In this document: piece by piece, positions 8,470-58,660 of the stretch
Position numbering within the stretch: the stretch's first letter is position 1
How the letters are laid out: the number at the start of each line of letters is the position of its first letter
DNA from: Mucidula mucida
Taxonomy: Eukaryota > Basidiomycota > Agaricomycetes > Agaricales > Physalacriaceae
Reading direction: 5' to 3'
DNA length: 64,000 nt
Assembly: GCA_015501055.1 (NCBI GenBank)
Contig: JADNYV010000201.1
Coordinates: 1-64,000 of the forward strand
Made by a program: the position numbers and the translations under genes
The notes under the pieces: model-generated
What the model was told of the DNA's origin: nothing
Seen by the model: only the letters and a program-made list of their open reading frames with translations
Databases searched by the model: none

Positions 8470-9018
8470 CTACAACAAATCCATCCTTCTCAAGACCAAC
8501 TCCTGGATCAGCAACATTTCCTCTTCCTCCGGCTCAGAAATGTCCTCATCGTCGTTGAATGCCCCCTTGGGTGACTGCATCGGAACGTTTGATCTTAACA
8601 CAGTGTGACTGTGTATGTCGTGTCCTTTGAGAGTTGAAGGACAAGATGGAAAAAGATCAAGGATATCCCCTAGCGAGTCTTCCTCCGAATCGTTTGACGA
8701 AGCCACCGTGCTTCTCCTCGACTTCCGCCCAGTGAACAACGAACGCAGTGAATCGGAGAACGACCGGATGTGTAATTTGGTCTGGGAATGCGAGCGCGTT
8801 CGTGGGCTGGAGAGGAGGCTGGAAGACGACGAGGAGCTGCCTGAGTGATGATAGACGGACGATGATAACGTGCTCATAAAGCGTTGGGTGAGGGTGGGTA
8901 ATGAGTTCGACCGGGATCGGGAAGAGGATTGGTCGACTTCAAGGAAATCAACTTTCACTGATGATTGCTTCTGCATGTTGGATATTTGAGTGTGGATGAA
9001 GAAGGCTGGTGAGTGCAT
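8470..9018 (-). CDS. Ser-rich/acidic-tail family protein, subfamily A copy 1
   Basis: A single-exon frame of 182 aa from the ATG at 9018; the family start MHSP is shared with the other copies. The order is a variable MHSPAFF.. N-terminus, a KVDFLEVDQ segment, a TLTQRFMSTLSS block, a poly-Ser run, a basic RTRSHSQTK..IRSFS..LRSLFTGRK segment, an acidic DSEEDSLGDILDLFP block and a conserved tail SEPEEEEMLLIQELVL ending MDLL. There is no signal peptide or membrane segment. It looks mostly disordered with two short conserved acidic/hydrophobic motifs, which could be docking peptides (inference). It is one of seven copies in this window and intact here. No known family recognised. Confidence 0.6.
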   Translation of the reverse strand: MHSPAFFIHTQISNMQKQSSVKVDFLEVDQSSSRSRSNSLPTLTQRFMSTLSSSVYHHSGSSSSSSSLLSSPRTRSHSQTKLHIRSFSDSLRSLFTGRKSRRSTVASSNDSEEDSLGDILDLFPSCPSTLKGHDIHSHTVLRSNVPMQSPKGAFNDDEDISEPEEEEMLLIQELVLRRMDLL

Positions 9019-9063
9019 TGTTGATGGAGTAAGAAGTCGGAAATCTTGGTTTAAGTATCTCAA

Positions 9064-9790
9064 GCAGGTTAGGAGCTACCCCACCGACATTTGCTTCCGT
9101 GCGGAACGGGGTAGACAGAAGTGGTTATCACCGCCTCGTTGGTTCAGCTATGTTTGTTGATGCTCTCCGACACGCGAACGCTTGCTCTGGAAAGTGCTCA
9201 TAGTGATGGCGATGGCGTAGCACTGCGACTGCGCGAAGATAGGTGCTGAACGCATGTCGACCAGAGGTGCTGGGATCACGGACTCCGGAGCGCCAGTGTT
9301 CGTTCGTGTTTCGCTTTGTGTGCGTCATATGATCGCAGTGCACTTCTTCAGACATGAATGAGGATGAGGTGTGTCTCTTCAAGGCTTCACTCCGGTGTTA
9401 TAACCTAGACCCGCTTGTCCACTATTTGCCGGCTTGGACAACATCTCCGCGACACCAGGCCTCAGGCTTCGAAACAGCAACGGACAGAAAGGCGTTAAGG
9501 AAGATAGTAGGCCCCGATTCGGGATGTGTCCTGAGGATCAAAGCATACGTGCCCGCCCGGTGTTCATGGGTCGTCGCAGCTCATGGCCTCATCTCACTGT
9601 CCACTCTTCACGCTTACGCTACCAACATCTCTGCACACGTCCGACGCTGGCTCGACTTGGGAGCAGGCTACACTTACTGGGTAACTGCAAAGTCACCTTT
9701 TTTCTTGACTGGATATTGTACGAGGGGGCTGATTCCGACTTTCACCAGATTTTATTTACTCTGGACTCTCCACCGATGAACTCGCGCTCA
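9064..9790. promoter_or_regulatory. Conserved upstream module of Ser-rich gene copy 1
   Basis: Blocks shared with the other Ser-rich copies, in the same order relative to the gene: CGGAACGGGGTAGACAGAAG at about 9101-9120, a TTTCGCTTTGTGTGCGTCAT block at about 9310-9330, GGTGTTATAACC..GACCCGC at about 9394-9415, and a distal CTACACTTACTGGGTAACTG block near 9670-9690. No protein frame spans them consistently. They may be promoter/enhancer sequence or simply part of the duplicated unit. Confidence 0.45.
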
Positions 9791-9982
9791 CGAGTACTGT
9801 GTTGTCACTCAATCGGTCGCAGACTTACTTGCCCCAGCAAAACGGCCATGGTCTGTTCAATCGAGCATCGCTTCAATGAATGCGGCACCGTAACTTCAAA
9901 TTTTCCTCACAATCGTTCATGACTATCTTGGACCACGTCATTTGTTTCAATCATGCTTTGTTGTTCCATGTATGCTCATATA

Positions 9983-10504
9983 CTACAACAAATCCATCCT
10001 TCCCAAGACCAACTCCTGGATCAGTAGTATATCCTCTTCCTCCGGCTCAGAAGTGTCCTCGTCGTCATTGAATGCCCCCGCAGGTGACAGCATCGGGATG
10101 TTTGGTCTTAACACGGTGTGGCTGTGCGTGTCGTGTCCTTTCCATTGTGGAAGAGTTGAAGGACAAGATGGAAAGAGATCAAGGATATCCCCCAGCGACT
10201 CTTCCTCCGAATCGTCTGAACAAGCCACCGTGCTTCTCCTAGGCTTCCGACCAGTTAACAACGAACGCAGTGAATTAGAGAACGACCGGATGTGGGATTT
10301 GGTCTGGGAATGCGAGCGCGTTCGTGGGCTGGAGTGGAGACTGGAAGACGACGAGGAACTGCCCAAGCGACGATGGATGGGCAATGATAGCGAGCTCATG
10401 AAGCGTTGGGTAAGGGTGGGTAATGAGTTCGATCGAGGTCGGGACTCGGAAGAGGTTTGAACTTCGTATGAGTCAACTTTCAAGACTACCGATTGCTTGC
10501 GCAT
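9983..10504 (-). CDS. Ser-rich/acidic-tail family protein, subfamily A copy 2
   Basis: The frame gives 173 aa from an internal Met (MRKQSVVLKVD). The family's usual upstream start MHSPMFFA is present at about 10554 but runs into a TAA before this Met, so the N-terminal 15-20 residues are lost or initiation has moved. The rest is intact: TLTQRFMSSL, poly-Ser, basic RTRSHSQTKSHIRSFS, acidic DSEEESLGDILDLFP and the tail SEPEEEDILLIQELVL...MDLL. It lies in the same orientation 0.9 kb from copy 1, so the two form a tandem pair. Its upstream module is at 10600-10830. It may be functional or a recent pseudogene. Confidence 0.5.
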   Translation of the reverse strand: MRKQSVVLKVDSYEVQTSSESRPRSNSLPTLTQRFMSSLSLPIHRRLGSSSSSSSLHSSPRTRSHSQTKSHIRSFSNSLRSLLTGRKPRRSTVACSDDSEEESLGDILDLFPSCPSTLPQWKGHDTHSHTVLRPNIPMLSPAGAFNDDEDTSEPEEEDILLIQELVLGRMDLL

Positions 10505-11399
10505 GGTGGAAACTTAAATGTGGGCGTGGGCGAAGAACATTGGTGAGTGCATTGTTGATGAAAAAAGGCAATCGAAAATCTTTGTTTAAGTACCTTCAGC
10601 GACCTACATTTGCTTCCGTGTGGAACGGGGTAGACAGGAGTCGCCTCGTTGATTTGGCTTGAGCGCAAATTGACCGGAGGAGGCAGTGTAAGTGTTCGTG
10701 TCTCGCCTTGTGTGCGTCATGCGATCGCAGCAGTCTTCTCCAGACATGGAGGCTTTGGGCTTCAGTCCGGTGTTATCACCCAGACCCGCTACGGCCCACT
10801 ACATGCCGAACTGGTGTTTCGTCGTTTCAAAAATCACTGCTTGGGTCAGAGAACAGAACGCAAGCAACGAGTGAAAACATTGCTTGTTATCAGTTCGAAC
10901 TCGCCAAAACAGACAATTATATGCAGAGAGCTTTCCTAGTTGTATGACGGATTGACTCTTACACAAACTCGCCTGTTTCCAGCTTCCTTCTACCATAAAA
11001 ACATATCGTTAGTCATGCGGAAGTTATCAGAATATACCGACTTACATGTATTCTGTGCGCATCTGCGCTGCTGTCCTGATCTTTGGTAAGGTACGCCTGA
11101 ACATCACGCTGACAGGGACTGCCTTGCGTGCCAGGATGTTTCGATAATCTCATTTTTGGCCAGTCTTACTGAGACTGAACGTGACGTTGTTCTTGATGTG
11201 AATACTTCATCGTGTGCATCAGTGTGGCGTCACTACTGACAATCTCGATAGACTTTACATCCGACTGCGCGCCGAACTGTTCCCTCGTTAGAATTGGACG
11301 CCAGTGTACATTTCTCCTCATAGTCATGCATGGGTACTGGATCGTGGAACATGAGTACTAACTATAGACACCTTTCACATCAATAATTCATGAGAGTCT
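10505..11399. other. Upstream module of Ser-rich copy 2, then intergenic
   Basis: 10600-10830 carries the family blocks (GGAACGGGGTAGACAG, TCGCCTTGTGTGCGTCAT, GGTGTTATCACCCAGACCCGC). 10830-11100 has no gene I can support. From about 11100 it is the 3' flank of the duplicated small-gene locus. Confidence 0.45.
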
Positions 11400-12870
11400 T
11401 CAATCAGTCATCCTTCTCCATTTGAGGTCATAATAGGAGGGAAGATTGTCTGATATGTTATATGCCTCCTTTGCCGCAGAAATCAGCTCAGGCCTCGTAA
11501 TCGAAGCCATATATTCGTCGTTCAAGTTGACGCCGAGGACGATGAGAAGGTAGGGATCGACGATTTTTATACGGGGCAATAATTCAAATCTGCTTTCTCC
11601 ATCAGACCAGGGACAATTTCATTCGTAGCACGCACCCGAATTGGTCCGCGTACTTGAGTTCCTCCCAACGCGGAAGTGCGAACTCTTCACGAATATCCCC
11701 AAGAAAAGATTTATATGTGCCCTCAACCTCGTCCGAGTCTATGACGAGTTTCCAGCACAACATGTAGGTGGGGGGCCTACGGCCGTTCACGATGGAGTCC
11801 GCGGGCGGCGGGCGTTCTGTCGCTGCGTAGAGCAATGGGAAGCCATTTCTGGGAAGGTGAACAATCACTATCATTGTGGTGCGAGAGCCACAAAGAACAA
11901 CTTACACGAGTTCACCCGCTTGCAACTTTCTGTGGCTATAATACAGCCCATTAAGTATTATGCGGCGCGAAGATGCCATTATGACTTGACTTACAGGTAT
12001 TCTCTGCGCCTCTGTGCTTCTGACATGGTTGTAAATAGCGTGTATCCTTTACTCAAGATTGAAAAGCGCGAGGTACTTCTTAAAGACGCGTTGGAATTGC
12101 CTAAAATGCTTGATATGCTAAGGTTAGTGGTGGTCGGAAGCCAAAAGTGGGTTGATCACTGACTGCCATCATCGTTTCCGACGTCCGTCAATCAATTCAC
12201 GCCTTTTCTCTTCAGATCAAGCACTGCGTAGACAATGTTGATATAGTCCTTGGCTAGCTGGTGCGTCGGCTACACGCCGTGCATGCGTAACTTGCTGACG
12301 GTGTCGACCAACAGGTTACAGGCCAACCTAATCGTTTCCGAGTCGCTTGCTGCACCACCGTTCGCAAAAGAGGACAATACATTCGCCGGATACGGTCGAG
12401 AATTCAAGGCCTGGTAAGTTGGTCGCCCCCTACAGGCCTATACAGCAGGCCCACGGGAAATTGGATTGCTGGCGGCCAAGGACGCGCTTACAGATCTCGT
12501 GCGTAGCCGCGTCTATATCACGCACCGAATTCAAACTAATTCCTTCCTAGAAACTAATCTGCTCTGTGGTGTCACGTATGGCCCAAAACTCAGTGGTATC
12601 CCCAGGTTCAAAGACGACCTTTGAATGCTCGCCATTATACGCCCCCGACATTCGGTTCCTGCAAAAGTGACACTCGACGTATATGATCGCTCTCAGACAC
12701 CCTATTGTTTATAGTTCGTCTACGCCCAACGAACGCGTTAGAAAGCCGGAGCATAAAAACTTGGGGTACGTCGTGTGTCTTGGAAAACGCACTGTCTATT
12801 ATTTGCTGATTGCCCTTTAGGTCCTCCCTCCACTGCGACATCTGGAATCTCCACGTTTCTTTGTTTTCAA
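11100..12870. repeat. Direct segmental duplication, unit 2
   Basis: Partner of 6150-7900. The upstream plus-strand relic (APPFAKEDN..GREFKAW) is at about 12230-12415, with a splice donor after it. Confidence 0.65.
11400..12026 (-). CDS. Small four-exon protein of unknown family, copy 2
   Basis: The ATG is at 12026 (MSEAQRRREYL) and the stop at 11400-11402. Exon 3 is 11848-11636 and exon 4 is 11589-11400. Exons 1 and 2 (32 and 30 nt) match copy 1 in length, and the total gives 154 aa in frame. The signature residues are kept: NGFPLLYAATERPPP, YMLCWKLVIDSDE, LPRWEELKYADQFG, FELLPRIKIV, LIVLGVNLND and AAKEAYNISDNLP. It sits in the second unit of the direct duplication, in the same orientation as copy 1. 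Preservation of every splice site despite clear divergence of the flanks suggests selection on the coding part. Function unknown. Confidence 0.65.
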
Positions 12871-13370
12871 TCGGATGAGCGCCATCGCTACCCGCGAGTG
12901 ATTAATTCTGTTTGACTAAAAGGGTAGACGTGCAGTGCATGAGCAAGAACTTTATAATCCCATCGTCCCGCAGCAAATCTGAGAGGCGCACATCATACGG
13001 AGCCACTTCAACTAGGTCGATTAACAGGACAACAATGTGCGCGCTCATAGAGACCGTGATATCAGTGGACGTACGAGTCCGCTTAATATCGTTACGATGA
13101 TTTGGTGCAGGGTTTGCTCCCTCGCGGTCGGACTACCTCAAAATTTTGAGAAGGTCAGGCTGAATATAACCGCTCAAACCTCATCCCATCAGCCGGCGAT
13201 GAGAACGTCTCTGGGAAGATTGGCGCTGGTACGGTATCATTGGTTCGACTGCGTCTCTCCTGGTACTAACGCCGATTGTTAACAGGTTCGGTCAGGGAAG
13301 ATCGATGAGAATGTATACATTCTGCGTATGACTTGATGCTGGATTGACACTGGTACGCCTGCAGTTTATT
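12871..13370. other. Intergenic stretch
   Basis: Short frames only; nothing supported. From about 13370 the sequence joins the Ser-rich subfamily B unit. Confidence 0.4.
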
Positions 13371-13579
13371 AACAGGACGCGCTCACAACGACCGCCAGCA
13401 TCAGCGGATATACAAGTCCGCATATTATCGTCACGATCATCTGGCAGGCCAGGCCGAACGCCTCTGTGGACACTTCAGCAACTGTATTTACGACCAATTC
13501 CCGTCGCGAGCGTCTTCGATATCATATGCCATCGGATATATTCAAATATTACATTCATATATTCTTCTCTTTCGCTAAA

Positions 13580-14194
13580 TCACAGCCCGAAATCATTCTT
13601 TCGAGCACCATCTCCTGCATTAGCAAGAAATCGTCTTCCTCCAGCTCGACATCTCTTCCTCGTTGAATTGCCCCGCGGATATTAGGATGTCTAGCGCGAG
13701 AGGTTCTTCCTCGCGTATGGGTCCTGTTACAGGATATTGGGATGGTACGATGTTCCCGTCCTCAATGTTCAAATACACCCGGTTCACGTCGTTGAATGTT
13801 GACACGTCGGGGATGGGCATGTTTTCCCATGGCGTCATATTGTCCAACAATCCCGCCGTGTTTCTCCTCGGCTTGTCGCTTCTCCTCCGCCCGACGAACA
13901 ATGAACGGAGGTTGATTCGCGGGAACGAATCTGAGAAGGACCTGACGTGTGATTTGGTTTGGGGTTGGGTGCCGACGCGGGGGTGTGGAATGAAGGCTGG
14001 AAGACGAGGAATTGGCCGAGCGACGGTGGCTTCGCGACAGTTGCTCTTAAAGCGTGGGTAAGGGCGGGTAATGAGTTCGCCCGAGGTCGAGAAGAGGACT
14101 GGTATTGGTCGACTTCATGGCAATCAACTTTGACTGCTGATTGCTTCTCCATCTTGGAGACTTTGGTGTGGGTGGAAAAGGCAGGCGAGTGCAT
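13580..14194 (-). pseudogene. Ser-rich/acidic-tail family, subfamily B pseudogene
   Basis: Starts MHSPAFS at 14194 and follows the subfamily B copies at 27908 and 57234 (SAVKVDCHEVD, RPRANSLPALT, FVGRRR, TAGLLDNM, DVSTFNDVNRVYL, EDGNIVPSQYPVTGP). It changes frame at least twice: near the Ser-rich middle, and again before the acidic tail, where DDFLLMQEMVLER is out of frame. The stop equivalent to the intact copies is at 13580. It is in the same orientation as the 57.2-kb copy. The upstream family blocks follow at 14265-14560. Confidence 0.7.
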
Positions 14195-15537
14195 TGTTGA
14201 TGGTTTTAGCAATCGGAAATCTGGGTTTATGAACCTCTAGCAGGTTAGGAGCTACCCCACCTACATTTGCTTCCGTTCGGAACGGGGTAGACAGAAAGTA
14301 GTCATCACCGCCTCGTTGGTTTGTTGATACTCCTCGATGTGTGCCGGTCTGCCTTCAGAGGCTTGGCGACGGCGTAGTGCTCAGAGATGCTTGACGATAT
14401 CTAAACGCAGGTCAACCGGAGATGTTGCGATAACGCAGTGTGCAAGTGTTTCGTGTTTCGCTTTGTGGGCGTCATCCGATTGCAGGGTTCTTCTTTAGAC
14501 ACGGATGTCTCTTCGAATCTTCAAAGCTTCACTCCGGCGTTATAACCCAGACCCGCTGGGCTGGCCGAGGTCCATTATTTGCCGGCTTCAGACAACATCT
14601 CCGTAAGAGCAAGCCTCAGGCTTCAAGAATATCGCGTTAGACGAAATCTGCTTGTTAGCTCATCCGTATTCATTCTATCGAGCGTGTGTCCAACGAAAGG
14701 AGCAGACGACTCGTCGATTAGATACTGCAGGGACTACAAGCCAGTGGGGGTAGGGAGAGAGAAGGTGCTTACGGTCATCGCCGGACAAATGCTCTCGGGG
14801 ACTCAAATATCCATTATTGCGAACGCCACGGGCGTGCTGGGATCACAATTAAGACTTCATACAAGTGTGCGAGTGGAGATATGGTGCATGTGTTCTCCGA
14901 AGAGAAGGAGAGACGAATCGTGCCAACAAGATAGATAGTGAATAATGATAGAAATGTTCGGAAAGAAACTAAGCGATTGAAAATGGTACGGAAATCCTTC
15001 ATTTAACCACGTCCCGGGATATAACAGAATCAGAGCTCAACTCGCCGACCCTGCGGTACGACTTCCAACAGCGTGTGCTTTGGACCGTGACAGCTGCGAC
15101 GTCGTCATGTTGAGTATCACAACAGATGAACGATACGTACCTTTTGCCTCTTATGAAGCCTCTCAGAATCGTCAAAGAGCTCTTTCCTGGTCGAGGTTGA
15201 CGGGTTGTAGGATGGTGGTATGTCGCTAAGGAAGACTCGTCAACATGTCAGGTAGCAAGCCAATCAGAATGAGACTACTAACATCGGGGATCCGTGTCTT
15301 CCTGTCGCTGATTCCTTTCATATCCATGAACTTTGCCTAGGATGTAGCGTTAACAATCGATACCGTTGACCGAGCTGGAGTAGCCGACGCACAACAAGCG
15401 CCTTAACGCCATCATAGCCGTCATCCGTGTCCTAAAGTCGCGAGTCATTCCTCCGTAATACGGGTACAGTGTAGAGCTCACCGCCAATGGTACGACATCC
15501 AGATCCTTTGGATAGAACTTTTCATGCTGGAGAGTGA
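14195..15537. other. Upstream module of the subfamily B pseudogene, then intergenic
   Basis: 14265-14560 holds CGGAACGGGGTAGACAGAA and GGCGTTATAACCCAGACCCGC blocks. 14660-15060 shows nothing. At about 15100-15240 a minus-strand stretch reads IPPSYNPSTSTRKELFDDSE and looks coding, but I could not connect it to the gene at 15538-16044. Confidence 0.4.
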
Positions 15538-19376: not shown

Positions 19377-19472
19377 ACTATAACGATGAAATAGACTATC
19401 TGAGAGATACATGTGAGGCTAGCTAAAAGTATGATACCTAGTATACAGGGCAGGTGTCGAGCAACAGAAATA

Positions 19473-24483: not shown

Positions 24484-24711
24484 TTAGTATCCCGTAGCGG
24501 GTTTGGGTGATAACACCGGACTGAAGTCGGTTTGAAGAACAGTGCTGCGATAGCATGACGCACGTAAAGCGAGACACGAACATTTGCACTGCTTCCTCCG
24601 GTCAATTGGAGAGCCGAATCAACGAAGCGCTTCTGTCTACCCCGTTCTGCACGGAAGCAAATCAGTAGGTGGTACTTAAACAAAGATTTTGGAGTGCTAT
24701 TTCCATCAACA
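24484..24711. promoter_or_regulatory. Upstream module of Ser-rich gene at 24712
   Basis: Inverted relative to the 9-kb copy but in the same order relative to the gene: GCGGGTTTGGGTGATAACAC near 24496, an ATGACGCACGTAAAGCGA block near 24555 and CTGTCTACCCCGTTCTGCAC near 24634. The layout matches every other family member. Confidence 0.45.
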
Positions 24712-25272
24712 ATGCACTCACCAGCCTTCTTCGCCGACATGAAAGTTTTCACCATGCGCAAGCAATCGGTAGTCAAAGTTGATTCATGTGAATTCGAGTC
24801 CTCCTCCCGATTTCGATCGAACTTATCACCCACCCTGACCCATCGCTTCATGAACACCCTATCATCACCCACCCATTGTCACTCGGGCAGTTCCTCGTCG
24901 TCTTCCTGCCTCCTGTCCACCCCAGAACCGCTATCACATTCCCAGACCAAATCACACATCCGGTCGTTCCCCAATTCGCTGCGTTCGTTGTTCGCTAGGC
25001 GGAAATCGAGGGCAAGCACGACGGAATCGTCGGACGATTCGGAGACGGAGGAAGAGTCGCTAGGGGATATCCTCGATCTCTTTCCTTCTTGTCCCTCAAC
25101 TCTTCCACAATGGAAAGGACACGACATATGCAGTCACACCGTGTTGATATCAAACGACCTGTTACCGTTACCTGCGAGGGCAGTTCACGATGATGAGGAT
25201 ATATCTGAGCCGGAGGAAGATGATATGTTACTGATCCAGGAGTTGGTCTTGGGAAGGATGGATCTGTTGTAG
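24712..25272 (+). CDS. Ser-rich/acidic-tail family protein, subfamily A copy 3
   Basis: An intact single-exon frame of 186 aa from the family start MHSPAFFADMKV. The order is KQSVVKVDSCEFE, TLTHRFMNTLSS, the poly-Ser run, SHSQTKSHIRSFPNSLRSLF, an acidic DSETEEESLGDILDLFP block and SEPEEDDMLLIQELVLGRMDLL. It is the most complete A-type copy. It lies head-to-tail with the broken copy at 26304 and the B-type copy at 27908, giving three plus-strand family members within 3.8 kb. Function unknown; the disordered, acidic/Ser-rich character suggests a regulatory or adaptor protein (inference). Confidence 0.6.
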   Translation: MHSPAFFADMKVFTMRKQSVVKVDSCEFESSSRFRSNLSPTLTHRFMNTLSSPTHCHSGSSSSSSCLLSTPEPLSHSQTKSHIRSFPNSLRSLFARRKSRASTTESSDDSETEEESLGDILDLFPSCPSTLPQWKGHDICSHTVLISNDLLPLPARAVHDDEDISEPEEDDMLLIQELVLGRMDLL

Positions 25273-26303
25273 CATATGAGTATACATGGAGAGTATACAT
25301 GGAAATCAAAAAGCATGATTGAAACAACCGACGTGGGCTGATAATCATGAACGACTGTGAGGAAAATTTGACAAAATGCCGATCCAATTGACTTGCTTGG
25401 GTAGGCAAGTCTGCGACCAATCAGTTATAACACGGTATCCCTGAGCGCGAGTTCATCGTAGAAGAGTCCAAAGTAGTAAATATCTGGTGAAAGTCGGAAT
25501 CAGCTACCTCGTAGTACGATACTATCCAGTCAAGAAAAAGGTGACCGAACTTTAGGCAGTCCATGCGCGTAGCGTTCCCTGGTCTTGCATGGAAGGTGCG
25601 TGGATCCCTTGACTTCGCAGTTACCCAGTAAGTGTAGCCTGCTCCCAAGTCTCGCCAGCGTCGGTTGTGTTGGCTGGTTACTAGTGTAAGCGTTAAAAGT
25701 GGACTGTGAGATGAGGCCATGAGCTACAACGACTCATGAACGCCGGGCTACTTACTAGTGTCCGCTACAAACATTGTCGGCGCCCGGGTGTACGTAGAAC
25801 TCATGACGTGTTTCGACCTCTTACAAGGTGTGAATATGAGTATAATACAGAAAGCGAGGCAAAATTTGTCAAGGATACAGCGATTTCAACACTGCGACTA
25901 CTTTTTCAACGTCCGCCGCCGTCCACGAGTATATGTGAGCTGTCCACCTTCGCCTCCCTTAGGACTCTTATTCTTCTGGTGGCGCAGTCTCTAGTTGCTT
26001 CGATTCTGTTTTCTGACCCGAGCAGTGATTCGAAACGATGAAACACCAATTCGACATAGTATAGCGCAACGTGGCGGGTTTGGGTGATAACACCGGACTG
26101 AAGCCCAAAGCTGCCATGTCTGGAGTGCTGCGATCGCATGACGCACTAAAGCGAGACACGAACATTTGCACTGCTTCCTCCGGTCAATTGGGAGCCGAAT
26201 CAACGAAGCGCTTCTGTCTACCCCGTTCCGCACGGAAGCAAATGTAGGTCTGACCTGCCAGAGGTACTTAAACAAAGATTTTCGAGTGCTATTTACATCA
26301 ACA
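25273..26303. other. Intergenic: 3' flank of copy 3 and upstream module of copy 4
   Basis: 25420-25720 is the distal upstream block of the family (a CTTACTGGGTAACTGC-type sequence, here reversed). 26060-26245 carries the proximal blocks (GGGTTTGGGTGATAACACCG, CTGTCTACCCCGTTCCGCAC). No gene. Confidence 0.45.
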
Positions 26304-26841
26304 ATGCACTCACCAATGTTCTTCGCCCACATTAAAATTTCTACCATGCGCAAGCAAGCGCCGTGAAGTTGATGCGTTTGAAGTCCAGTCCTCCTCCCGA
26401 CACCGATCGAACTCATTACCCGCCTTCACCCAACGCTTCATGAGCACGCTATCATTGCCCACCCATCATCACTCGGGCACTTCCTCATCGTCTTCCAGCC
26501 CACGAACACGATCGCATGCCCAGACCAAATCACACATCCGGTCGTTCTCCAATTCGCTGCGTTCGTTGTTCGCTGGGCGAAAGCCGAGGAGAAACTCCAC
26601 AGAGTCGGCGGACGATTCGGAGACGGAGGAAGAGTCACTAGGGGATATTATCGATCTCTTTCCATCGTGTCCCTCAACCCTTCCACAATGGAAAGGACAC
26701 GACCACACCGCGTTGAGATCAAACGATCCGATATCGTTACTTGCCGGGGCATTCGACGTTGATGAGGATACATCTGAGCCGGAGGAAGAGCATGTGTTGC
26801 TAATACAGGAGTTAGTCTTGGGAAGGATGGATTTGTTGTAA
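26304..26841 (+). pseudogene. Ser-rich/acidic-tail family, subfamily A copy 4 (frameshifted)
   Basis: Starts MHSPMFFAHIKISTMRKQA, then hits an early TGA at about 26364 because bases are missing where the intact copies read KQSVVKVD. Downstream the family frame is open again to 26841 (TQRFMSTLSLP, SHAQTKSHIRSFS, DSETEEESLGDIIDLFP, SEPEEEHVLLIQELVLG). A shorter product from a later Met (about 26440) is conceivable. Confidence 0.65.
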
Positions 26842-27907
26842 CATATGATCATGAAGTGAATGAGAAGTGCATGATGATGATTGAAACAACAGACGTCGTC
26901 CAAGATAATTATGAGGACCGGAGGGAAGTTCAACCAAACTCTGCCGATGCAAGTGAATACACCACGACCATTTTGCTTGGGTAAGTAAGTCTGCGACCAA
27001 TGCGGTACCAACACGATGTGAACGCAAATTCATGTAAAAGAGTTCAGACTAACGAGAAAACATATCTAGTAAAAGTGGGAGTCAGACGTGTCGTACGATA
27101 TCGAGCTATAGAATAGGTGACCGTACTTTACGCACCACATGCGCGTAGCGTTCGTTCCTCGCCTTGATTGGAGAGTGCGAAGATCTAGACTTGTAGCGTA
27201 ATCCCAAGTTTAATCTAGCCAGCGTCAGACGGGCGCAGACATGTGGCTTGGTCGATATCGTAAGCGCGAAGAGTGGTCAATGAGATGATGCGACGACTCT
27301 CAAACAGTGCAGTAAATCAAGAAAGAATACAATTGCCTGTGTAAGGAGCAGGCACCGCTAAACAGTGGGTATGCTTTAATTTCCATGGCGCCTTCCGATG
27401 TTGTCCTACCGAGGCCTGTTATCTTCCCTAACGCCCTTCCGTCGGTTGCTTCGTGAAGTCCTGGGCTTGCTGTCGTGGATATATTATCCGAGCCGGCGTA
27501 AAATGGACCAGCCAGCCAAGCGGGTCTCGGTTATAACACCGGACTGAAGCCTCGAAGAAACATCCCTCCATCCTCAACGATGTCTGAAGAAGAGCACTGC
27601 AATCGTATGACGCACATAAAGCGAAACACGAACACTTACATTTTGCACGGTACATTATCCTCGACTCCGGTCGACCTACGTTCAGCTATCTTCAAGCAGC
27701 CCACAGCATTACGCCACCACCAAGCCTGCAGCAGTTCTAGGCGCAGACCGCCACTCGTCCAGGAGTATCAACAAACAAAGCTGAACCAACGAGGCGGTGA
27801 TAACTACTTCTGTCTACCCCGTTCCGCACGGAAGCAAATATGGGTGAGATAGCTCCCAACCTGCTAGAGGTACATAACCAGAATTATGACTGCTAAGACC
27901 ATCAACA
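26842..27907. other. Intergenic, with upstream module of the 27908 gene
   Basis: 27120-27230 is a diverged distal block of the family module. 27415-27850 carries the proximal blocks (CGGTTATAACACCGGACTGA, CTGTCTACCCCGTTCCGCAC). Segmental duplicate Q begins at about 27415. Confidence 0.45.
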
Positions 27908-28528
27908 ATGCACTCACCTACCTTCTTCGCACGCACCAAAGTCTCCAAGACGGAGAAGCAATCGGCAGTCAAAGTTGATTGCCATGAAGTTGACCACTAC
28001 CAGTCGTGTTCTCGACCTCGGGCGAACTCGTTACCCGCCCTCACCCAACGCTTGAAGGGCACGCTGTCGCGGAGCCAACGTCACTCGTCCTATTCCTCAT
28101 CATCCAGCCTTCATTCCACACCCGCGTCGGCACCCAGTCCCCAGACCAAACCACACGTCAGGTTCTTCTCAGGTTCATTCCCGCGAATTAACCTCCGTAC
28201 CTTGTTCGTCGCGCGGAGGAGAACCTACAAGCCGAGCAGAAACATGGCGGGATCGTTGGACAATATGGAGCCAAGAAAAAACATGCTCTTCCCCGACGTG
28301 TCAACATTCAATGATGCGAATCGCGTGTATTTGGACATTGACGACGGGAGCATCGTACCATCCCAATATCCTGTGACAGGACCCATATGCGAGGAAGAAC
28401 CTCTCGCGCTAGACATCCTAATATCCGCGAGGCAATTCGATGAGGAAGAAGATCTGTCCGAGCCGGAGGAAGACGATTTCTTGCTAATGCAGGAGGTGGT
28501 GCTCGAAAGAATCGATTTCCGGCTGTGA
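27908..28528 (+). CDS. Ser-rich/acidic-tail family protein, subfamily B (206 aa)
   Basis: An intact single-exon frame, almost identical to the 57851-57234 copy. Subfamily B keeps the A-type plan (MHSP start, SAVKVDCHEVDHYQ, LTQRLKGTLSR, Ser-rich run, basic segment LRTLFVARRR). It adds a central region absent from A: MAGSLDNMEPRKNM, then FPDVSTFNDANRVYLDIDDG and SIVPSQYPVTGPICEEEP. It ends LSEPEEDDFLLMQEVVLERIDFRL, matching the A tail in pattern. The central block is well conserved even in the 13.6-kb pseudogene, so it is probably a folded or interaction segment. Function unknown. Confidence 0.65.
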   Translation: MHSPTFFARTKVSKTEKQSAVKVDCHEVDHYQSCSRPRANSLPALTQRLKGTLSRSQRHSSYSSSSSLHSTPASAPSPQTKPHVRFFSGSFPRINLRTLFVARRRTYKPSRNMAGSLDNMEPRKNMLFPDVSTFNDANRVYLDIDDGSIVPSQYPVTGPICEEEPLALDILISARQFDEEEDLSEPEEDDFLLMQEVVLERIDFRL

Positions 28529-39436: not shown

Positions 39437-39499
39437 TATGGTATGTGTTTTGGTGAGGTAAGTTGTATAGTGAGTCTTGGTATAGTTTAGTTAAGGTTG

Positions 39500-46694: not shown

Positions 46695-46783
46695 TTATTT
46701 CATGCGAAGTGTCAGCTTTTGTTGGGATTAGTTTATGGGGCCTTGTAAGTTTATACTAATCCAGCTCTTCTGCGCGGTTTAAT

Positions 46784-46811
46784 GAAAATAGTGGGATTTC
46801 CGAAAATAGTG
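46784..46811. repeat. Tandem GAAAATAGTG motif, candidate right end of the Plavaka element
   Basis: GAAAATAGTG at 46784-46793 and 46802-46811. Ending in TAGTG, the reverse complement of CACTA, either could be the element terminus. No matching CACTATTTTC was found to the left, so the boundary is unproven. Confidence 0.35.
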
Positions 46812-46899
46812 TGAATTAGCCTCGGATTACTCCCAGAATACCTGGGAGGCTTTTTCCTGATGAGTATGACTGACCAAAAAGTCAATTCTCAAACCTGTA

Positions 46900-51655: not shown

Positions 51656-52969
51656 ATGGCCCCCTCTTTGCCGCCAGAGCTCTTAGACATGGTCGTTCAG
51701 TACCTGCCCAAGGATGCCGAAACGACTCTGCAAAACTGCGCGCTTGTCGCGCGAACGTGGACTGGTCCCAGTCAGAGCGCCCTTTTCCATCACATCGACC
51801 TGTCCAGGTATGGCATCATGACGAACCTACTCGCCCACCTCGTCTGCTTTCCCCATCTCCAAACGCTCATTCAGGACGTGTCGTTGTATCAATTGCCTAG
51901 AGATCGTGAACGTTACGATAGCAGCTATAACAGAGTCTATTCGACTTGTGTCTCTGCTCTCTTCCGTCTCTTCCCTCATCTAATGTCGATAACGGTCGTC
52001 ATCGGCGGACTTAAATATCAGGAAGAAGAAGGTAAAGGATATTTCCTCGAAGTCGTCAATGAATACCTTCGCCATTCATCGACGCTCGTCGCGATCGAGA
52101 TCGTCACGATATGCGATGCCTATCACTTCGCCAAAGCTATTTCGATTTTAGAAGGAAGCAGAGTGAAACGAGTTTGCTTCTGCAGTGCGGAGGAGCAATG
52201 GAGGCCCGCTCAGGAGCTCAAAAGAGTTGCGCGGCAAGTTAGTTCCCTGCCGCATGTTGACTTCCTGCGTCTGGACATATGGGAACATTGTAACGGCCAA
52301 GGTACCTTTGCGTTCTGGTTCTCTAAACCGCATATGATGTTTCCCAATCTGAAACACTGCGAAGTCGTTGCCTCGCTGGTTACTGACGGATTGGCGGATT
52401 GGCTTAGCTGGTTTCGTCAACCGTCTCTCCTGCTAGAGTCTTTCAGAATGGAGCTCAACGTCGACGGTACGGGCTTCTTCTGTTGGCCTACGAATAATCA
52501 CTCCATCGTATTTTTAGAAGAATTTTACTGGGATGTTACACCAGAGGATAATGTCAATGATGCTGCTCACCTAACAAATGTTCACTCCATTCTTCTGGGA
52601 CTACGTTGCGCGCATCTCCAAATGGGCATCCACTCATTTGTTGATGACCTAGAGCCTGATCGCGAGCAGTTGCTACTCGATTGGTGGTCCTCCTCGCTCC
52701 GCACCCTCGCCGACTCTAATACGACTATCCATTTCGAGGAGCTCACCCTCCCTTTCAACGATGCACCCCATGTTGAGGCTGTATCGGTCGCTTGGGACGC
52801 GCTCGACAAGGTACTTGCCCATGCTGCATTCTCTGGGGTACAGCAGGTCCACTTTGAGGAGATTCGTGGACGAATTGTCATCACCGACGAGACACATCCG
52901 GAGCTGACACCCAGAATACGGAACGCTATGCCCCGCCTTGCGGGTCGGGGTGTTCTTTGCTTTTTATAG
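51656..52969 (+). CDS. F-box/LRR-like protein, paralogue of 47729
   Basis: The ATG at 51656 (MAPSLPPELLDMVVQYLPK) is chosen because the F-box starts there; upstream in-frame Mets precede it without homology. The F-box includes LQNCALVARTWTGPSQSALFHHIDL. LRR-like repeats follow (FPHLQTLIQDV, FPHLMSITVVIGG, STLVAIEIVTI, VKRVCFCS, FPNLKHCEVV, LRTLADSNTTIHFEELTLPF) and the MPRLAGRGVLCFL end. The frame is open throughout (437 aa). A 51-bp GTACGG...TTTTAG stretch at 52467-52517 sits at the position and phase (1) of the intron in the 47729 gene. Removing it keeps the frame and gives 420 aa, so I predict two exons, 51656-52466 and 52518-52969. Confidence 0.8.
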   Translation: MAPSLPPELLDMVVQYLPKDAETTLQNCALVARTWTGPSQSALFHHIDLSRYGIMTNLLAHLVCFPHLQTLIQDVSLYQLPRDRERYDSSYNRVYSTCVSALFRLFPHLMSITVVIGGLKYQEEEGKGYFLEVVNEYLRHSSTLVAIEIVTICDAYHFAKAISILEGSRVKRVCFCSAEEQWRPAQELKRVARQVSSLPHVDFLRLDIWEHCNGQGTFAFWFSKPHMMFPNLKHCEVVASLVTDGLADWLSWFRQPSLLLESFRMELNVDGTGFFCWPTNNHSIVFLEEFYWDVTPEDNVNDAAHLTNVHSILLGLRCAHLQMGIHSFVDDLEPDREQLLLDWWSSSLRTLADSNTTIHFEELTLPFNDAPHVEAVSVAWDALDKVLAHAAFSGVQQVHFEEIRGRIVITDETHPELTPRIRNAMPRLAGRGVLCFL

Positions 52970-53512: not shown

Positions 53513-54460
53513 CTATCCCAACGCCAACAAGGCAGGATCAATGACGCCCTTGTAGTCAGCCCAAGCAATAGGCTTAATCTCCTGGTCCTTCACCGCACAA
53601 ACGCGCCTCTCCACCACTTCCACTTCCTCTGCCTGAGCCTTGGCCAGCAAGGCACGTGCTTCCTCTTCCTCTTCCTCCTCCGCCTTTGCCTCCGCCTTTG
53701 CCTTCGCCTTCTTCTGATACGCAAGCCATAGAGGAAATAGATAGTTGGAGCGCGGACCAGGAAGATCACCCTCTGGGATAGGGCACGTGGGGTCATTGTA
53801 CTGATAATATTCCAGTGGGTGTGACGGAGTCCACATGGGAGGACCCATCGCGCCCCGAGTCGACGTCTTCGGTGATTCGTGTTGAGCGGAGCCACTGGCA
53901 GCGGGTGGTGGAGTAATGACAGCACGATGATATGGGCTTTGTTTGCGACGACGAGCGGCGCGCGCAGGCTTTGGCTTTGGCTGGGGACCCATCGCGCCCA
54001 AGGTGAACATCGTCGGTGGCTGGTACTGAACGGGAACACTTGGAGCGACCTGGACTGGACGAGTGGCGGGTGGTGGTGGTGGTGGAATGAAGGCAGGTGC
54101 GGATTGGCTTTGTGTGGGCCGGCGCGGCCTCTTTGTACTCTTCTTCAAGTCGCCTTTGTGAACAGCGCGTTCAGGCACCGTCCCCCCAGGCTCCGACGAC
54201 CTATCGGGTGCCGGCATCTCAAACGACAGATGCGCCACCGACTCCCCGGCATCTTTCGCTCTCTCTCGCGCCAAATCCCGTGCTCTGCTCAATCGGCCTC
54301 CAAGTCTGTCCCAGAACAACTGTTGCGCCGAAGTGAGCTCATACCAGTCTTTGTCAACGAACTCCGTGTAGTTGTGCTGGTATGCGCTGTAGAGTTGCTT
54401 GAAGTGTGGAACCGTCTGGTAGGATCTTCCCTGCCAGACGTAGTTGAACGGGTGGGACAT
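53513..54460 (-). CDS. Proline/lysine-rich protein of unknown family, 315 aa (intact copy)
   Basis: A single-exon frame. The N-terminal about 75 residues form a compact aromatic/charged part (FNYVWQGRSYQTVPHFKQLY, WYELTSAQQLFWDRLGG, RARDLARERAKDAG). A basic linker (KKSTKRPRRPTQ) and a Pro-rich stretch (FIPPPPPPATRPVQVAP) follow. The well-conserved block TRGAMGPPMWTPSHPLEYYQ, then NDPTCPIPEGDLPGPRSNY and LWLAYQKK leads into a long Glu/Ala/Lys helix, probably coiled coil, and a tail ending DPALLALG. The copies at 30903 and 19788 are broken. The N-terminal part is short and helical enough to be a DNA- or protein-binding module, but I do not recognise it. Confidence 0.65.
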   Translation of the reverse strand: MSHPFNYVWQGRSYQTVPHFKQLYSAYQHNYTEFVDKDWYELTSAQQLFWDRLGGRLSRARDLARERAKDAGESVAHLSFEMPAPDRSSEPGGTVPERAVHKGDLKKSTKRPRRPTQSQSAPAFIPPPPPPATRPVQVAPSVPVQYQPPTMFTLGAMGPQPKPKPARAARRRKQSPYHRAVITPPPAASGSAQHESPKTSTRGAMGPPMWTPSHPLEYYQYNDPTCPIPEGDLPGPRSNYLFPLWLAYQKKAKAKAEAKAEEEEEEEARALLAKAQAEEVEVVERRVCAVKDQEIKPIAWADYKGVIDPALLALG

Positions 54461-57233
54461 GGCGGGAACGTAGTAGAATAAATGGGAGGATGAAGAGGTT
54501 CGCCCAGCGAAGGAGAAGGAGGCAGCGCAGTGAGGCAGTGGTGGTAGTCGATGGTGAGTTACAAAGAGCGCGCGCGCTCCATTGTTAGATCGAGCCAGTC
54601 ACGTGCGGCGCGCTTTGACTGCTGTCCAATTCAAGCCATTCGGCCAAAGCAGGAGCTGACAATGGAATGTCATTATGGAACGTGGAGCATTAGGCGAATA
54701 AAGCGAATTATTGCTGGTGTTGGTGCTTCGAGGATTACCGAAGTGTGGCGTGTCGATAATCTACAACAATGGATTAGACACGCTATTTCAATTGAACCAT
54801 AGAGCCGACCTTTTGACACGTCACATTGCCGAGACCGCGCTGCTGCACAGGAGGAATTGTTGATCTCCTGGCCAATTTCCGTTGCATGGACCACTGACAT
54901 ATGGCCCAGACCGAAGGCCGTTAGAAGCGAGGCTGCGCAGAGAAGATAATATCAGTACGTTTATCATCTCAGTTAGAATGCCATTATAACTGACCAAGCT
55001 ATTTTTGAGGCAATGACCGGTCTGCAGATATGTCCGCTGTGCTTGGACACGTTAATCTCAATCTCCATCCAGTCTTCCATGGAGTGGGAATGCCGCTACG
55101 CTATAGCAGGATACGAACCCGGCTTCGATACGACAGCAACGCTTGTCTGGATTGCGTTCTCTACGAGCGCGGGACTACTTGCGGATGCTTTGCGTGATCC
55201 ATGACCAACGTGTAAGCCAAACACGACGTGTCAGGCAGCAGGAGCTGGTGACTGCCAGTAGATACGCTATCTGTCTTCGAAGTCTGGCGAACTTACCATC
55301 ATGGGATTGGGGTGCGTGCTGAGTCTACGAAGGAAGTCCGGCTATGTCGCGCATTAGTACCCGACAGACGAAAGCAAAGTCTAAAGAGAAATTACTGGAG
55401 CATAGGGAGCTGGATAACGGTCGCGCCATGGCTGCTTCAATCTTTCCAAATCCTCTTCGAGATGTTACTCGATCAACGAGTGATATCGGCGCCTTCGATT
55501 GCTCCGGGTCCTAATTCGACCTGTACGCATCCATAAAAAGAAAACTCCTCCGTTATTGTATAAGACACTTGATGAGCGCGAGATCTTGGAGCTTGAGGTG
55601 TGATTGTCCTTGTGAGCACGAGTACATCAATCGTCTGTTCTTGCCCGCCAAGGGCCGTCCTATACGCGTACAATTCGTCCATCGTTTAGAATTGGGCAAC
55701 GGGTTAATGGAAGAGTGCGTATATTCGGCCAGAACGCGCGATGGACTGAAGGTGTTCTGCCCAACTATTGCATATGTAAAGCGCCGTCTCTCCTTGTCGA
55801 GCGCGCACCTCCGAGATGACGTGTTGTCCTGATTCGCATACTAACTGCGTTCTCGTGAGTTTCATTTCATATCCGAAAGAGGAATCACAAACATACCACG
55901 CCAGATGCATGTAGACTTGAGTTTAAGGAAGTTTTTCATTTCAACACCGGTCATCGTCAACCCGTTGCGAACGGCACGAGTAATATGGTAAGCTCAAAGC
56001 TGTCTAGCGATTTAGCCAGGCCTGGGCGGTGCAAATTGAATACATTTCACTGCGGACGTGATCAGGCTCACCTGTAGGGCAATTCTCGGGCCGCAGCGCT
56101 TGAAACGACCAGCTAATCTCGTACGCCATTGAGTTACGGGGCGTCGCATGTAGGTCATCCCTCGGCTTGGCGAGGATCATAAGCCTAGTGCGCGCGGGGA
56201 AGAAATCCATACAGCGCCGATGACGGGCATCTAGAGACAGGTGGTCTTGGTGGTGGGTAGTGGCGTGTAGAGCGCGCCAAAGAGGAGTCTCACATCGCAA
56301 AGGGATCTGTGAAAAGTTCTTCAATTCGGCATATCTAGTCGTGGTCGACAAACAAAAACGCACCATATTTACTCAGAAGTCGCCCAGATACAGCTCGTTC
56401 CCGAGTGCGGCACATTGTTAACGTTAACGCCCAAATTAACCCGCAGGTGAGAGTCGTCCAGCGTCCTAGTTTGGCCGTACGCGTAATGACATTGATAAGG
56501 TCCATATCAAGAAGGAATCAGAAAGCCTCTGGCACAAGCATCGCGAAAATTCCGACTCCTTTTATGGACTCCTGCAGAGCCTACCATAGCGCGCAACCTT
56601 CACAGACTTGGTACTCGCGCTCGCGGCGTCATTTTCTTCGTGGTCTCTGTATCATGCTCGTTCGCGGACGGAATGCGTCGCTGTTGGTAGTAATGATGAA
56701 CGTTGGCGGTGTAGAAAAGTGCCGGCGGCATTTCTCGGTTCGCCCCGAACACCTGCTCTTCTAGTAAACGACTAGTACCCAACAACAGTGGGACCTCGAA
56801 AGACGAACACAGTACTCTGAGAGGCGAGTGGGCTACTTGTTATGCTCAGGAAACTGTTTAATAAGATGACCCGGAGTCGTGCACTGATAACAGACATGTC
56901 GGGACCTACCAGTTCATACTCTCAAACACAAACGACTCTCCACACTATCAACTGGATATTCCACCCCAATTAGCGGCGGTTTTGTTTTGTTGAGCCTTTT
57001 TAAACAATTATTTTCCCCCGGCGACTGGCGTTCAGCCCTGCATGTCCTCCTTCCTTCCTTACACTTGGATGCCGACGCTTGGGACGTCTGATACCTGGCA
57101 GGCCAGGCCGAATGGCTCTGTGGACACTTCAACCACTGCATTTACGACCAATTCTTGTCGCGGACTGCTTCGATATCATATGTCATTGGATATATTCACA
57201 AATTACATTTATGAATTCTTCTCTCTCGCTAAA
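54461..57233. other. Degenerate interior of segmental duplicate P
   Basis: No intact gene. Minus-strand traces of the dead SKPG-type gene lie near 55140-55010 (a stop after KPGSYPAIA) and 56130-56070 (MAYEISWSFQAL then ENCPTGEP). 56800-57000 matches 28930-28770 (Q) and 23755-23890 (R). Confidence 0.45.
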
Positions 57234-57851
57234 TCACAGCCGGAAATCGATTCTTTCGAGCACCACCTCCTGCATTAGCAAGAAATCGTCTTCCTCCGGC
57301 TCGGACAGATCTTCTTCCTCATCGAATTGCCTCGCGGATATTAGGATGTCTAGCGCGAGAGGTTCTTCCTCGCATATGGGTCCTGTCACAGGATATTGGG
57401 ATGGTACGATGCTCCCGTCGTCAATGTCCAAATACACGCGATTCGCATCATTGAATGTTGACACGTCGGGGAAGAGCATGTTTTTCCTTGGCTCCATATT
57501 GTCCAACGATCCCGCCATGTTTCTGCTCGGCTTGTAGGTTCTCCTCCGCGCGACGAACAAGGTACGGAGGTTAATTCGCGGGAATGAACCTGAGAAGAAC
57601 CTGACGTGTGGTTTGGTCTGGGGACTGGGTGCCGACGCGGGTGTGGAATGAAGGCTGGATGATGAGGAATAGGACGAGTGACGTTGGCTCCGCGACAGCG
57701 TGCCCTTCAAGCGTTGGGTGAGGGCGGGTAACGAGTTCGCCCGAGGTCGAGAACACGACTGGTAGTGGTCAACTTCATGGCAATCAACTTTGACTGCCGA
57801 TTGCTTATCCGTCTTGGAGACTTTGGTGTGGGTGAAGGCAGATGAGTGCAT
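57234..57851 (-). CDS. Ser-rich/acidic-tail family protein, subfamily B (205 aa)
   Basis: Near-identical to 27908-28528; the starts differ (MHSSAFTHTKVSKTDKQ against MHSPTFFARTKVSKTEKQ). Then comes the same order: SAVKVDCHEVDHYQ, LTQRLKGTLSR, Ser-rich run, LRTLFVARRR, FPDVSTFNDANRVYLDIDDG, PSQYPVTGPICEEEP and the tail LSEPEEDDFLLMQEVVLERIDFRL. No stop or shift. Nearly all differences fall in the first 16 residues. Upstream blocks lie at 57925-58660. No known family. Confidence 0.65.
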   Translation of the reverse strand: MHSSAFTHTKVSKTDKQSAVKVDCHEVDHYQSCSRPRANSLPALTQRLKGTLSRSQRHSSYSSSSSLHSTPASAPSPQTKPHVRFFSGSFPRINLRTLFVARRRTYKPSRNMAGSLDNMEPRKNMLFPDVSTFNDANRVYLDIDDGSIVPSQYPVTGPICEEEPLALDILISARQFDEEEDLSEPEEDDFLLMQEVVLERIDFRL

Positions 57852-58660
57852 TATTGATGGTCTTAGCAGTTGTAAATCTGGGTTTATGAACCTCTAGCAG
57901 GTTAGGAGCTACCCCACCGACATTTGCTTCCGTTCGGAGCGGGGTAGACAGAAGTAGTTATCACCGCCTCGTCGGTTTAGCTTTCTTTGTTGGTACTCCT
58001 CGACGAGTGGCGGTCTGCGCTTAGAACTACTGCAGGCCTGGTGGCGGCCTAATCCTGTGGGCTGCTTGAACGTATGTCGACCGGAGTCGAGGATAATGCA
58101 CCGTGCAAAACCAAGTGTTCGTGTTTCGCTTTATGTGCGTCATATGATCGCAGGTGCTCTTCTTCAGACATCGTTGCATGTTTCTTCAACGGTTCAGGTC
58201 GGTGTTATAACCCAGACCCGCTTGGCTGGCTGGTCCACTATTTGTCGGCTCGGACAACATGATCTCCGTGACAGCAGGCCTCAGGCTTCGAAACAGCAGC
58301 AATGGGCGGAAAAGCGTTAAGGAAGATAGTAGTAGGCCTCGATTCGGGATGCCCCGCGAGGATTGAAGTACATGTGCCCGCCCGGTTTTCATGAGTCGTC
58401 GCAGCTCACGCCCTCATCTCAATGTCCACTGTCCACTCTCCGCGCTTACCACCACGCAACATCTCTCGACGCTGGCTGGACTTGGGGGAGCAGGCTGTAC
58501 TTACTGGGTAACTGCGAACTCAAGGGATCCACGCACCTTCCATGCAAGGCCAGGGAACGCTACGTGCATGGGCTGTCTAAAGTACGGACACCTTTTTCTT
58601 GACTGGATAACTAACGTACGAGGTGACTAATTCCGACTTTCACTAGATTTTAATGACTCT
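57852..58660. promoter_or_regulatory. Conserved upstream module of Ser-rich gene at 57234
   Basis: GGAGCGGGGTAGACAGAAGT near 57936, TTTCGCTTTATGTGCGTCAT near 58124, GGTGTTATAACCCAGACCCG near 58200 and a distal CTTACTGGGTAACTGCGAAC near 58499. Order and spacing match the 9-kb copy. Confidence 0.5.

What the first reader, a model, noticed from the sequence alone, without database searches (positions are those of the whole stretch)
8470..58660. Seven-copy undescribed Ser-rich protein family with a conserved acidic tail motif
Copies at 8470-9018, 9983-10504, 13580-14194 (dead), 24712-25272, 26304-26841 (dead), 27908-28528 and 57234-57851. All share the same plan: MHSP start, KVD block, poly-Ser, basic SH.QTK..IRSFS, and a tail of the form SEPEE(D/E)..LL(I/M)QE(L/V)VL. 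Two subfamilies exist; B has an extra conserved central block (STFNDANRVYL, SQYPVTGP). Such local expansion with retained reading frames in five of seven copies suggests a functional, fast-evolving family. I do not know any named family that matches.
Basis: partly seen in the sequence, partly recalled or inferred. Interest (0 to 1): 0.75.

Follow-up and report, generated by a model that had tools for sequence, protein, structure and literature searches.

The report
Mushroom-only disordered protein gene family
A family of small, apparently unstructured, serine-rich proteins of unknown role, found so far only in two related mushroom genera, has multiplied in one of them by copying the gene together with its control region, while the protein reading frame still looks kept by selection.

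Summary
The window (Mucidula mucida, Physalacriaceae) holds seven copies of two subfamilies at the stated places. The assembly holds at least 30: 16 A, 13 B and one overlooked founder-like gene (contig C427, intact, 235 aa), 78-80% identical to one Hymenopellis radicata protein. Outside Mucidula, four H. radicata proteins were the only named relatives found; no Pfam family or significant PDB match. Not a transposon: copies sit on nine contigs, in tandem or segmental duplications carrying about 430 bp of promoter. A 27-nt promoter box matches at 29 of 29 A/B copies and nowhere else. Two contigs look like the other haplotype: the two dead copies are open there, two open ones broken there. AlphaFold2 gives a disordered chain with one C-terminal helix. 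Best mechanism, inferred only: a disordered adaptor with a conserved AGC-kinase/14-3-3-type site and an acidic helix motif. An undescribed family of an ordinary kind (lineage-specific, birth-and-death); moderate interest.

The parts
8470..9018 (-). A copy, 182 aa, open; probable allele C436:6585-7132 is frameshifted; carries a B-type upstream region (A/B mosaic)
9983..10552 (-). A copy; MHSP start (10552) followed by an in-frame stop, open from internal Met as 173 aa (9983-10504); probable allele C436:4979 frameshifted
13580..14194 (-). B copy, frameshifted; probable allele C436:1306-1926 is open (206 aa)
24712..25272 (+). A copy, 186 aa, open; probable allele C334:29647 also open; lacks the RxRxxS/RxxSxP site
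26304..26841 (+). A copy, frameshifted after 60 nt; 133-aa frame from internal Met; probable allele C334:28080 open (179 aa)
27908..28528 (+). B copy, 206 aa, open; same coding sequence as probable allele C334:26392 (0 differences)
57234..57851 (-). B copy, 205 aa, open; probable allele C334:2254 open
9093..9119 (-). promoter element III (exact match) upstream of copy 8470
10612..10638 (-). promoter element III (2 mismatches) upstream of copy 9983
14269..14295 (-). promoter element III (1 mismatch) upstream of copy 13580
24632..24658 (+). promoter element III (1 mismatch) upstream of copy 24712
26213..26239 (+). promoter element III (exact) upstream of copy 26304
27809..27835 (+). promoter element III (exact) upstream of copy 27908
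57926..57952 (-). promoter element III (2 mismatches) upstream of copy 57234
24497..24564 (+). promoter elements I (24497-24520) and II (24545-24564) upstream of copy 24712; matches to both lie upstream of the other six window copies too

Best explanation
These are real protein-coding genes of a lineage-specific family, seen only in Mucidula and Hymenopellis among named organisms. SHOWN: one founder-like gene (C427) is conserved between the two genera. In Mucidula there are two derived subfamilies, A (lacks the central YPVTGP..EEEP block) and B (most copies lack the EEESLxDI block). Both multiplied by DNA-level tandem and segmental duplication that carried along about 430 bp of family-specific promoter. 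The protein frame bears the mark of moderate purifying selection, while individual copies and alleles are broken. Copies are mosaics of one another, which fits gene conversion. The protein is predicted disordered, basic in its N-terminal half and acidic in its C-terminal half, ending in one short helix. INFERRED: it works as a disordered adaptor or regulator read through short motifs. The site SRPR(S/A)NSLP (RxRxxS and RxxSxP) would be phosphorylated by an AGC-type kinase and docked by 14-3-3. The acidic SEPEE(D/E)..LLxQExxL helix, whose hydrophobic spacing fits a leucine-rich nuclear export signal or another helix-in-groove ligand, would bind its partner. Extra copies would raise dose and variety under one shared set of regulators. 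I give the gene-family part about 0.93, the disordered motif-adaptor part about 0.5, and the specific kinase/14-3-3 plus export-type helix reading about 0.2.
For: Copies and founder. Founder against P0015: 80%, 78%. Tree: A and B each one group at full support, founder with P0015 and P0019. Selection: pooled pN/pS 0.442 (36 A pairs) and 0.460 (36 B pairs); true frame 0.43 (8 A) and 0.46 (5 B) against 0.51-1.45 in the other five frames; without selection, counting substitutions only, 2.6% of A and 2.4% of B frames would stay open at 0.17 substitutions per site. Promoter: element III 29 hits, one at each of the 29 A/B copies, none elsewhere, reversed-pattern control 0; element I 24 hits, all at family loci, control 0; element II 27 hits, 24 at family loci with the founder exact, control 1; footprint shared with the founder although founder-to-copy dS is 0.70-1.19. 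Not dispersed: 45 matches on 9 contigs. Disorder: mean pLDDT 50.9, pTM 0.13, one helix 221-228. RxxSxP at the aligned place in 18 of the 21 rows that cover it, out of 23 rows scanned. Four-hydrophobe spacing in the tail in 26 of 28 rows. Mosaics.
Against: No expression, localisation or binding data. The motif reading is weak: shuffled tails match the hydrophobic pattern in 4-45% of cases; basic clusters are short and absent in several intact copies; the intact copy 24712 and the Hymenopellis ortholog P0015 lack RxxSxP, and the founder itself lacks RxRxxS. A disordered call with 23 sequences may partly reflect a shallow alignment. The intact allele pairs lean to amino-acid changes (11 N: 2 S summed; p = 0.07), which hints at relaxed constraint now. 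Gene conversion blurs pairwise dN/dS. Elements I and II miss 6 of the 30 copies each at 3 mismatches, and element III misses the founder.
Confidence: 0.5

Rival explanations
1. The copies are cargo or remnants of a transposable element, and the frames are passengers.
For: The neighbourhood is rich in retroelements and other mobile DNA: a Copia-type polyprotein with terminal repeats, a Plavaka transposase and an integrase fragment. Copies are repeated and some are broken.
Against: All 45 protein matches lie on 9 contigs, whereas a dispersed repeat in this window (ORF 1566/18121) gives 154 matches, whole or partial, spread over the assembly. The shared unit is promoter plus ORF plus a short 3' stretch, duplicated in tandem or with neighbours. 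No TE domain in the six window frames scanned. The frame is conserved.
Confidence: 0.03
2. The expanded A and B copies are now mostly redundant debris; only the founder lineage is functional, and the low dN/dS is inherited from before expansion or kept by gene conversion.
For: 10 of 29 A/B copies are broken (6 A, 4 B), and 3 further A copies have a lost start or lost native stop. In 4 of 7 window loci one allele is broken. Intact allele pairs show 11 N: 2 S. Segments look converted between copies.
Against: pN/pS within A and within B, which counts only changes after their split, is 0.44 and 0.46. Open frames at this divergence are improbable without selection. Promoter element III is kept in every A/B copy, though this includes the broken ones and so is weak support.
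Confidence: 0.25
3. A small secreted effector or cell-surface family.
For: Clustered, lineage-specific, fast-turnover small proteins are often secreted effectors (recalled).
Against: No hydrophobic leader: the highest mean hydropathy over 11 residues in the first 35 is 1.73, and below 1.3 in 17 of 19 frames. Few cysteines (0-5), strong split of charge, no helix at the N-terminus. No signal-peptide program was available.
Confidence: 0.05
4. A polymorphic recognition repertoire (for example individual recognition), with diversity kept by gene conversion and null alleles.
For: The probable haplotypes differ in which copies are open, and divergence between them reaches 13-20% at 9000-10500 around A copies. 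Proteins from other assemblies (P0002, P0010, P0012) match the 19 intact frames here at 79-80% at best, while the founder fragment P0017 is 99% identical.
Against: Overall purifying, not diversifying, pattern. Patches of high divergence also lie away from the family (7000-7500, 15%; 55000-55500, 16%). No recognition domain. Which organism the other assemblies come from is not known.
Confidence: 0.07

Closest known systems
Hymenopellis radicata hypothetical proteins P0015 (BDZ89DRAFT_1045994), P0014 (1039421), P0013 (1134117), P0018 (1146056)
   Same: Same family: same block order and the same acidic tail (P0013's tail end diverges; P0018 lacks the N-terminal half); P0015 groups with the C427 founder, 78-80% identical.
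   Different: All four keep the central block that A lacks and all or part of the block that most B copies lack; four proteins found there against at least 30 gene copies here; unnamed, no function.
Mucidula mucida NCBI hypothetical proteins CPB85DRAFT_1442769, 98580, 418078, 1260419, 1458385, 1490908, 1258414, 1256856
   Same: Database models of gene copies of this family.
   Different: Unnamed and, in the papers searched, undescribed (no paper holds either locus-tag prefix).
Lineage-specific, tandem-expanded orphan families of disordered proteins (general kind, recalled)
   Same: Birth-and-death turnover, signs of gene conversion, short motifs in a disordered chain, no domain.
   Different: Family-specific promoter module of about 430 bp duplicated with the copies and still recognisable in the founder.
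14-3-3 client proteins with an AGC-kinase site (general kind, recalled)
   Same: RxRxxS / RxxSxP site at one conserved place in most members.
   Different: Binding and phosphorylation untested; the site is missing in some intact members.

Membership tests
Any curated Pfam domain family | Score above gathering threshold | tested here: not met
   6 window frames scanned; only sub-threshold hits, best E 0.019; the founder was not scanned
Family with a solved structure | Significant profile match in PDB sequences | tested here: not met
   2 hits at E 0.1 only
Transposable element protein | Transposase/RT/integrase domain | tested here: not met
   6 window frames
Transposable element protein | Dispersed copies genome-wide | tested here: not met
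   9 contigs against a dispersed control ORF
Transposable element protein | Terminal inverted repeats and target-site duplications | tested here: inconclusive
   No inverted repeat of 150 nt or more flanks a single copy in the repeat scan; shorter ones not searched
Secreted effector | N-terminal signal peptide | tested here: not met
   Crude hydropathy of 19 frames only
Mucidula/Hymenopellis orphan family (defined here) | Acidic tail SEPEE..LLxQE and poly-Ser/basic block order | tested here: met
Mucidula/Hymenopellis orphan family (defined here) | Promoter element III within about 105 nt of the start | tested here: met
   29 of 29 A/B copies; founder only in degenerate form; Hymenopellis DNA not available
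14-3-3 client | RxxpSxP-type site at a conserved place | tested here: met
   18 of 21 covering rows; sequence pattern only
14-3-3 client | Phosphorylation-dependent binding | not testable with these tools
   needs protein
CRM1 cargo | Four hydrophobic residues with export-signal spacing | tested here: inconclusive
   26 of 28 rows, but shuffled tails match in 4-45%

The most novel reading that the evidence does not exclude
A new class of mushroom regulator: disordered, kinase-gated adaptors whose variant repertoire (A and B copies differing between the two nuclei of one dikaryon, reshuffled by gene conversion under one shared promoter code) makes each individual's set distinct and feeds an as yet unknown recognition or developmental pathway built on the conserved founder.
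Probability: 0.06. Interest if true: 0.75.

Novelty: new member of a known kind. Interest (0 to 1): 0.42.

Why it matters
It is a clean, small case of a taxonomically restricted gene family: a founder-like gene conserved between genera, two derived subfamilies, a promoter module that travels with the gene, and both haplotypes apparently visible in one assembly. That makes the birth-and-death process and its regulation directly testable, and it gives a family definition that can replace 'hypothetical protein' in these genomes. The function remains open.

Tried and rejected
Transposon origin: rejected. Named domain or solved relative: none. Distant relatives outside Mucidula/Hymenopellis: the two profile searches, at E<=1 and E<=10, found none in any other named species; P0019, from an unnamed source, is a more distant relative at 67% over 96 residues. 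The searches need shared 5-residue words, and only the 7994 best candidates were scored, so more diverged relatives in other Physalacriaceae are not excluded. Structured RNA in the window: none at gathering thresholds. Nuclear localisation signal: only short basic clusters, not conserved. The antisense frame rev 1 also shows pN/pS 0.51-0.58; this is expected because its third positions fall on those of the true frame, and the true frame is lower in all three sets. An excess of amino-acid changes between alleles was looked for and is not significant (11:2, p = 0.07). In my upstream alignment some columns far from the gene are alignment noise; I used only the blocks that the founder shares. C427 first looked like a broken copy because the DNA hit was partial; the full ORF is intact. 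Tandem repeats: only short arrays, none explaining the family. Genes beside the founder: four frames scanned, no informative domain. Literature: search listings only, no paper opened. One search (locus-tag prefixes) returned 0 papers; (Mucidula mucida + genome; Hymenopellis radicata + genome; Oudemansiella / lineage-specific / gene family expansion) no listed title or abstract start is about this family.

Full report
What was checked. Five are open; 13580-14194 and 26304-26841 are frameshifted. In copy 9983 the shared MHSP start is separated from the rest by an in-frame stop, so its open frame starts at an internal Met. The tail, the poly-Ser block and the basic block are as described.

Where it is. 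Two proteins that the database places on this very contig (length 65538) are named Mucidula mucida, as are six others on other contigs of the family; this fungus and Hymenopellis radicata are both Physalacriaceae. The window is contig C163, 1-64000 of 65538, in an assembly of 59.9 Mb and 1047 contigs.

How large the family is. DNA and protein searches of the whole assembly give 16 A copies, 13 B copies and one founder-like gene; the tool calls such counts lower bounds. They lie on contigs C163, C436, C334, C85, C210, C630, C683 and C52, with the founder alone on C427. It is 80% identical in alignment to P0015 of H. radicata (78%) and keeps both the block that A lacks and the block that most B copies lack. 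H. radicata has three more members (P0013, P0014, P0018). On a tree of 27 protein rows A is one group (100/100), B is one group (100/98), and the founder sits with P0015 and the unnamed P0019 (99/99), apart from the other three H. radicata proteins. The root is not determined, but since the founder and P0015 pair across the genera, at least two lineages look older than their split, and the A/B expansion appears on the Mucidula side only.

Is it under selection? With 9 A and 9 B open frames the pooled pN/pS is 0.442 and 0.460 (36 pairs each). After dropping near-identical copies (8 A and 5 B kept), the true frame gives 0.43 (A) and 0.46 (B); the other five frames give 0.51-1.45, and the closest, an antisense frame, shares third positions with the true one. 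Without selection and counting substitutions only, 2.6% of A and 2.4% of B frames would stay open at 0.17 substitutions per site, about half the typical pairwise dS. Against this, the few changes between alleles that are open on both haplotypes are 11 non-synonymous to 2 synonymous (summed), not significant against paralogue ratios (p = 0.07), but a warning that constraint may be weak now. Of the 29 A/B copies, 16 are open from start to native stop (7 A, 9 B), 3 A have a lost start or stop (9983, C85:91920, C85:36238), and 10 are broken (6 A, 4 B).

The two haplotypes. C334 is colinear with window 19854-60104 in four blocks at 95-98% identity; about 12 kb of the window (34842-46863, holding the Copia-type element and the Plavaka transposase) is missing from it, and it has extra sequence near 55-57 kb. 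C436 is colinear with 4322-15498 at 91-94%. I read these as the other nucleus of a dikaryon; for C436, at lower identity, a paralogous segment is not excluded. On that reading 4 of the 7 window loci have one broken allele: 13580 and 26304 are broken here and open there; 8470 and 9983 are open here (9983 from an internal Met) and broken there. Every locus has at least one open allele. The breaks are small indels, often clustered, in otherwise similar sequence, so consensus errors in the assembly cannot be excluded.

How it spreads. Identity between copies extends about 430 bp upstream and a short way downstream. In that stretch three elements and a TATA-like site stand out and are shared, the third in degenerate form, with the founder, although dS between founder and copies is 0.70-1.19. 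Element III (27 nt, with an inverted repeat TTCCG-N2-CGGAA) has 29 matches with up to 3 mismatches in 59.9 Mb, one in front of each of the 29 A/B copies, and the reversed pattern has none. Element I has 24 matches, all at family loci, control 0. Element II has 27, of which 24 are at family loci including an exact one at the founder and 3 are elsewhere, control 1. So elements I and II each miss 6 of the 30 copies at this threshold. Promoters that come along speak against retroposition from mRNA. Neighbouring sequence is duplicated too. Divergence between haplotypes is a mosaic, with patches of 13-20% around the A copies at 9000-10500 but also patches of 15-16% away from the family (7000-7500, 55000-55500). 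The closest relative of a copy changes along its length (copies 9983 and C436:4979), as gene conversion would give. Copy 8470 has an A coding region behind a B-type promoter.

Why it is not a transposon. There is no transposase, reverse transcriptase or integrase domain in the six window frames scanned, and copies are confined to nine contigs. As a contrast, the short ORF at 1566 and 18121 in the same window has 154 whole or partial matches spread over the assembly.

What the protein looks like. AlphaFold2 on 23 aligned members gives mean pLDDT 50.9, pTM 0.13, and a single helix at residues 221-228 of the founder, in the acidic tail. In 19 frames the N-terminal half carries a net charge of +5 to +16 and the C-terminal half -8 to -21, and no hydrophobic leader is seen. 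A site reading SRPR(S/A)NSLP in most members is kept at the same place: RxxSxP in 18 of the 21 rows that cover it. The founder has RxxSxP but not RxRxxS; P0015 and the intact window copy 24712 have neither. That these patterns are those of AGC kinases and 14-3-3 proteins is recalled knowledge. The tail has four hydrophobic residues spaced as in a leucine-rich export signal (pattern recalled) in 26 of 28 members, but shuffled tails match this in 4-45% of cases, so it shows an amphipathic helix and no more.

How it most likely works. I commit to a disordered adaptor: kinase site and 14-3-3 docking at the front, partner-binding helix at the end, dose and variety set by copy number under a common promoter code. 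The gene-family part is shown; the adaptor part is inferred from motifs and predicted disorder; the specific partners are a guess.

Novelty. No Pfam, PDB or functionally named relative was found, and no paper in the library holds either locus-tag prefix. It is an undescribed family, but as a kind, a lineage-specific disordered family under birth-and-death, it is ordinary.

Noticed in passing
L032:4071-4778 (C427:6071-6778, -): Founder-like member of the family, intact 235 aa, conserved with Hymenopellis P0015; the only family match found on its contig.
   Followed up: yes
window 53513-54460(-), 30903-31801(+), 19788-20632(-): A second repeated gene (MSHPFNYVWQGRSYQ..., no Pfam match); two of its three window copies lie in the same inverted duplication as B copies 27908 and 57234. 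Diverged relatives lie on C85, C210, C436, C683 and elsewhere.
   Followed up: partly
window 1520-2827 and 18075-19379: 99.8% identical 1.3-kb duplication holding a 234-aa ORF with 154 whole or partial matches across the assembly: a recent dispersed repeat.
   Followed up: partly
window 34953-39813: Copia-type element with a 1389-aa open frame and 99-100% identical terminal repeats, in a stretch missing from C334: probably a recent insertion on one haplotype.
   Followed up: partly
window 43404-46322: Plavaka transposase (44739-46322) with an upstream ORF (43404-44207) showing weak C2H2 zinc-finger hits, in the same stretch missing from C334.
   Followed up: no
window 47729-48796, 51656-52969: Weak F-box-like proteins (below the curated cut-off); DNA related to the first lies on C630 beside other family copies.
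   Followed up: no
L024 (C85:93549-94303): A B copy interrupted by a 92-nt insertion of unknown origin.
   Followed up: no
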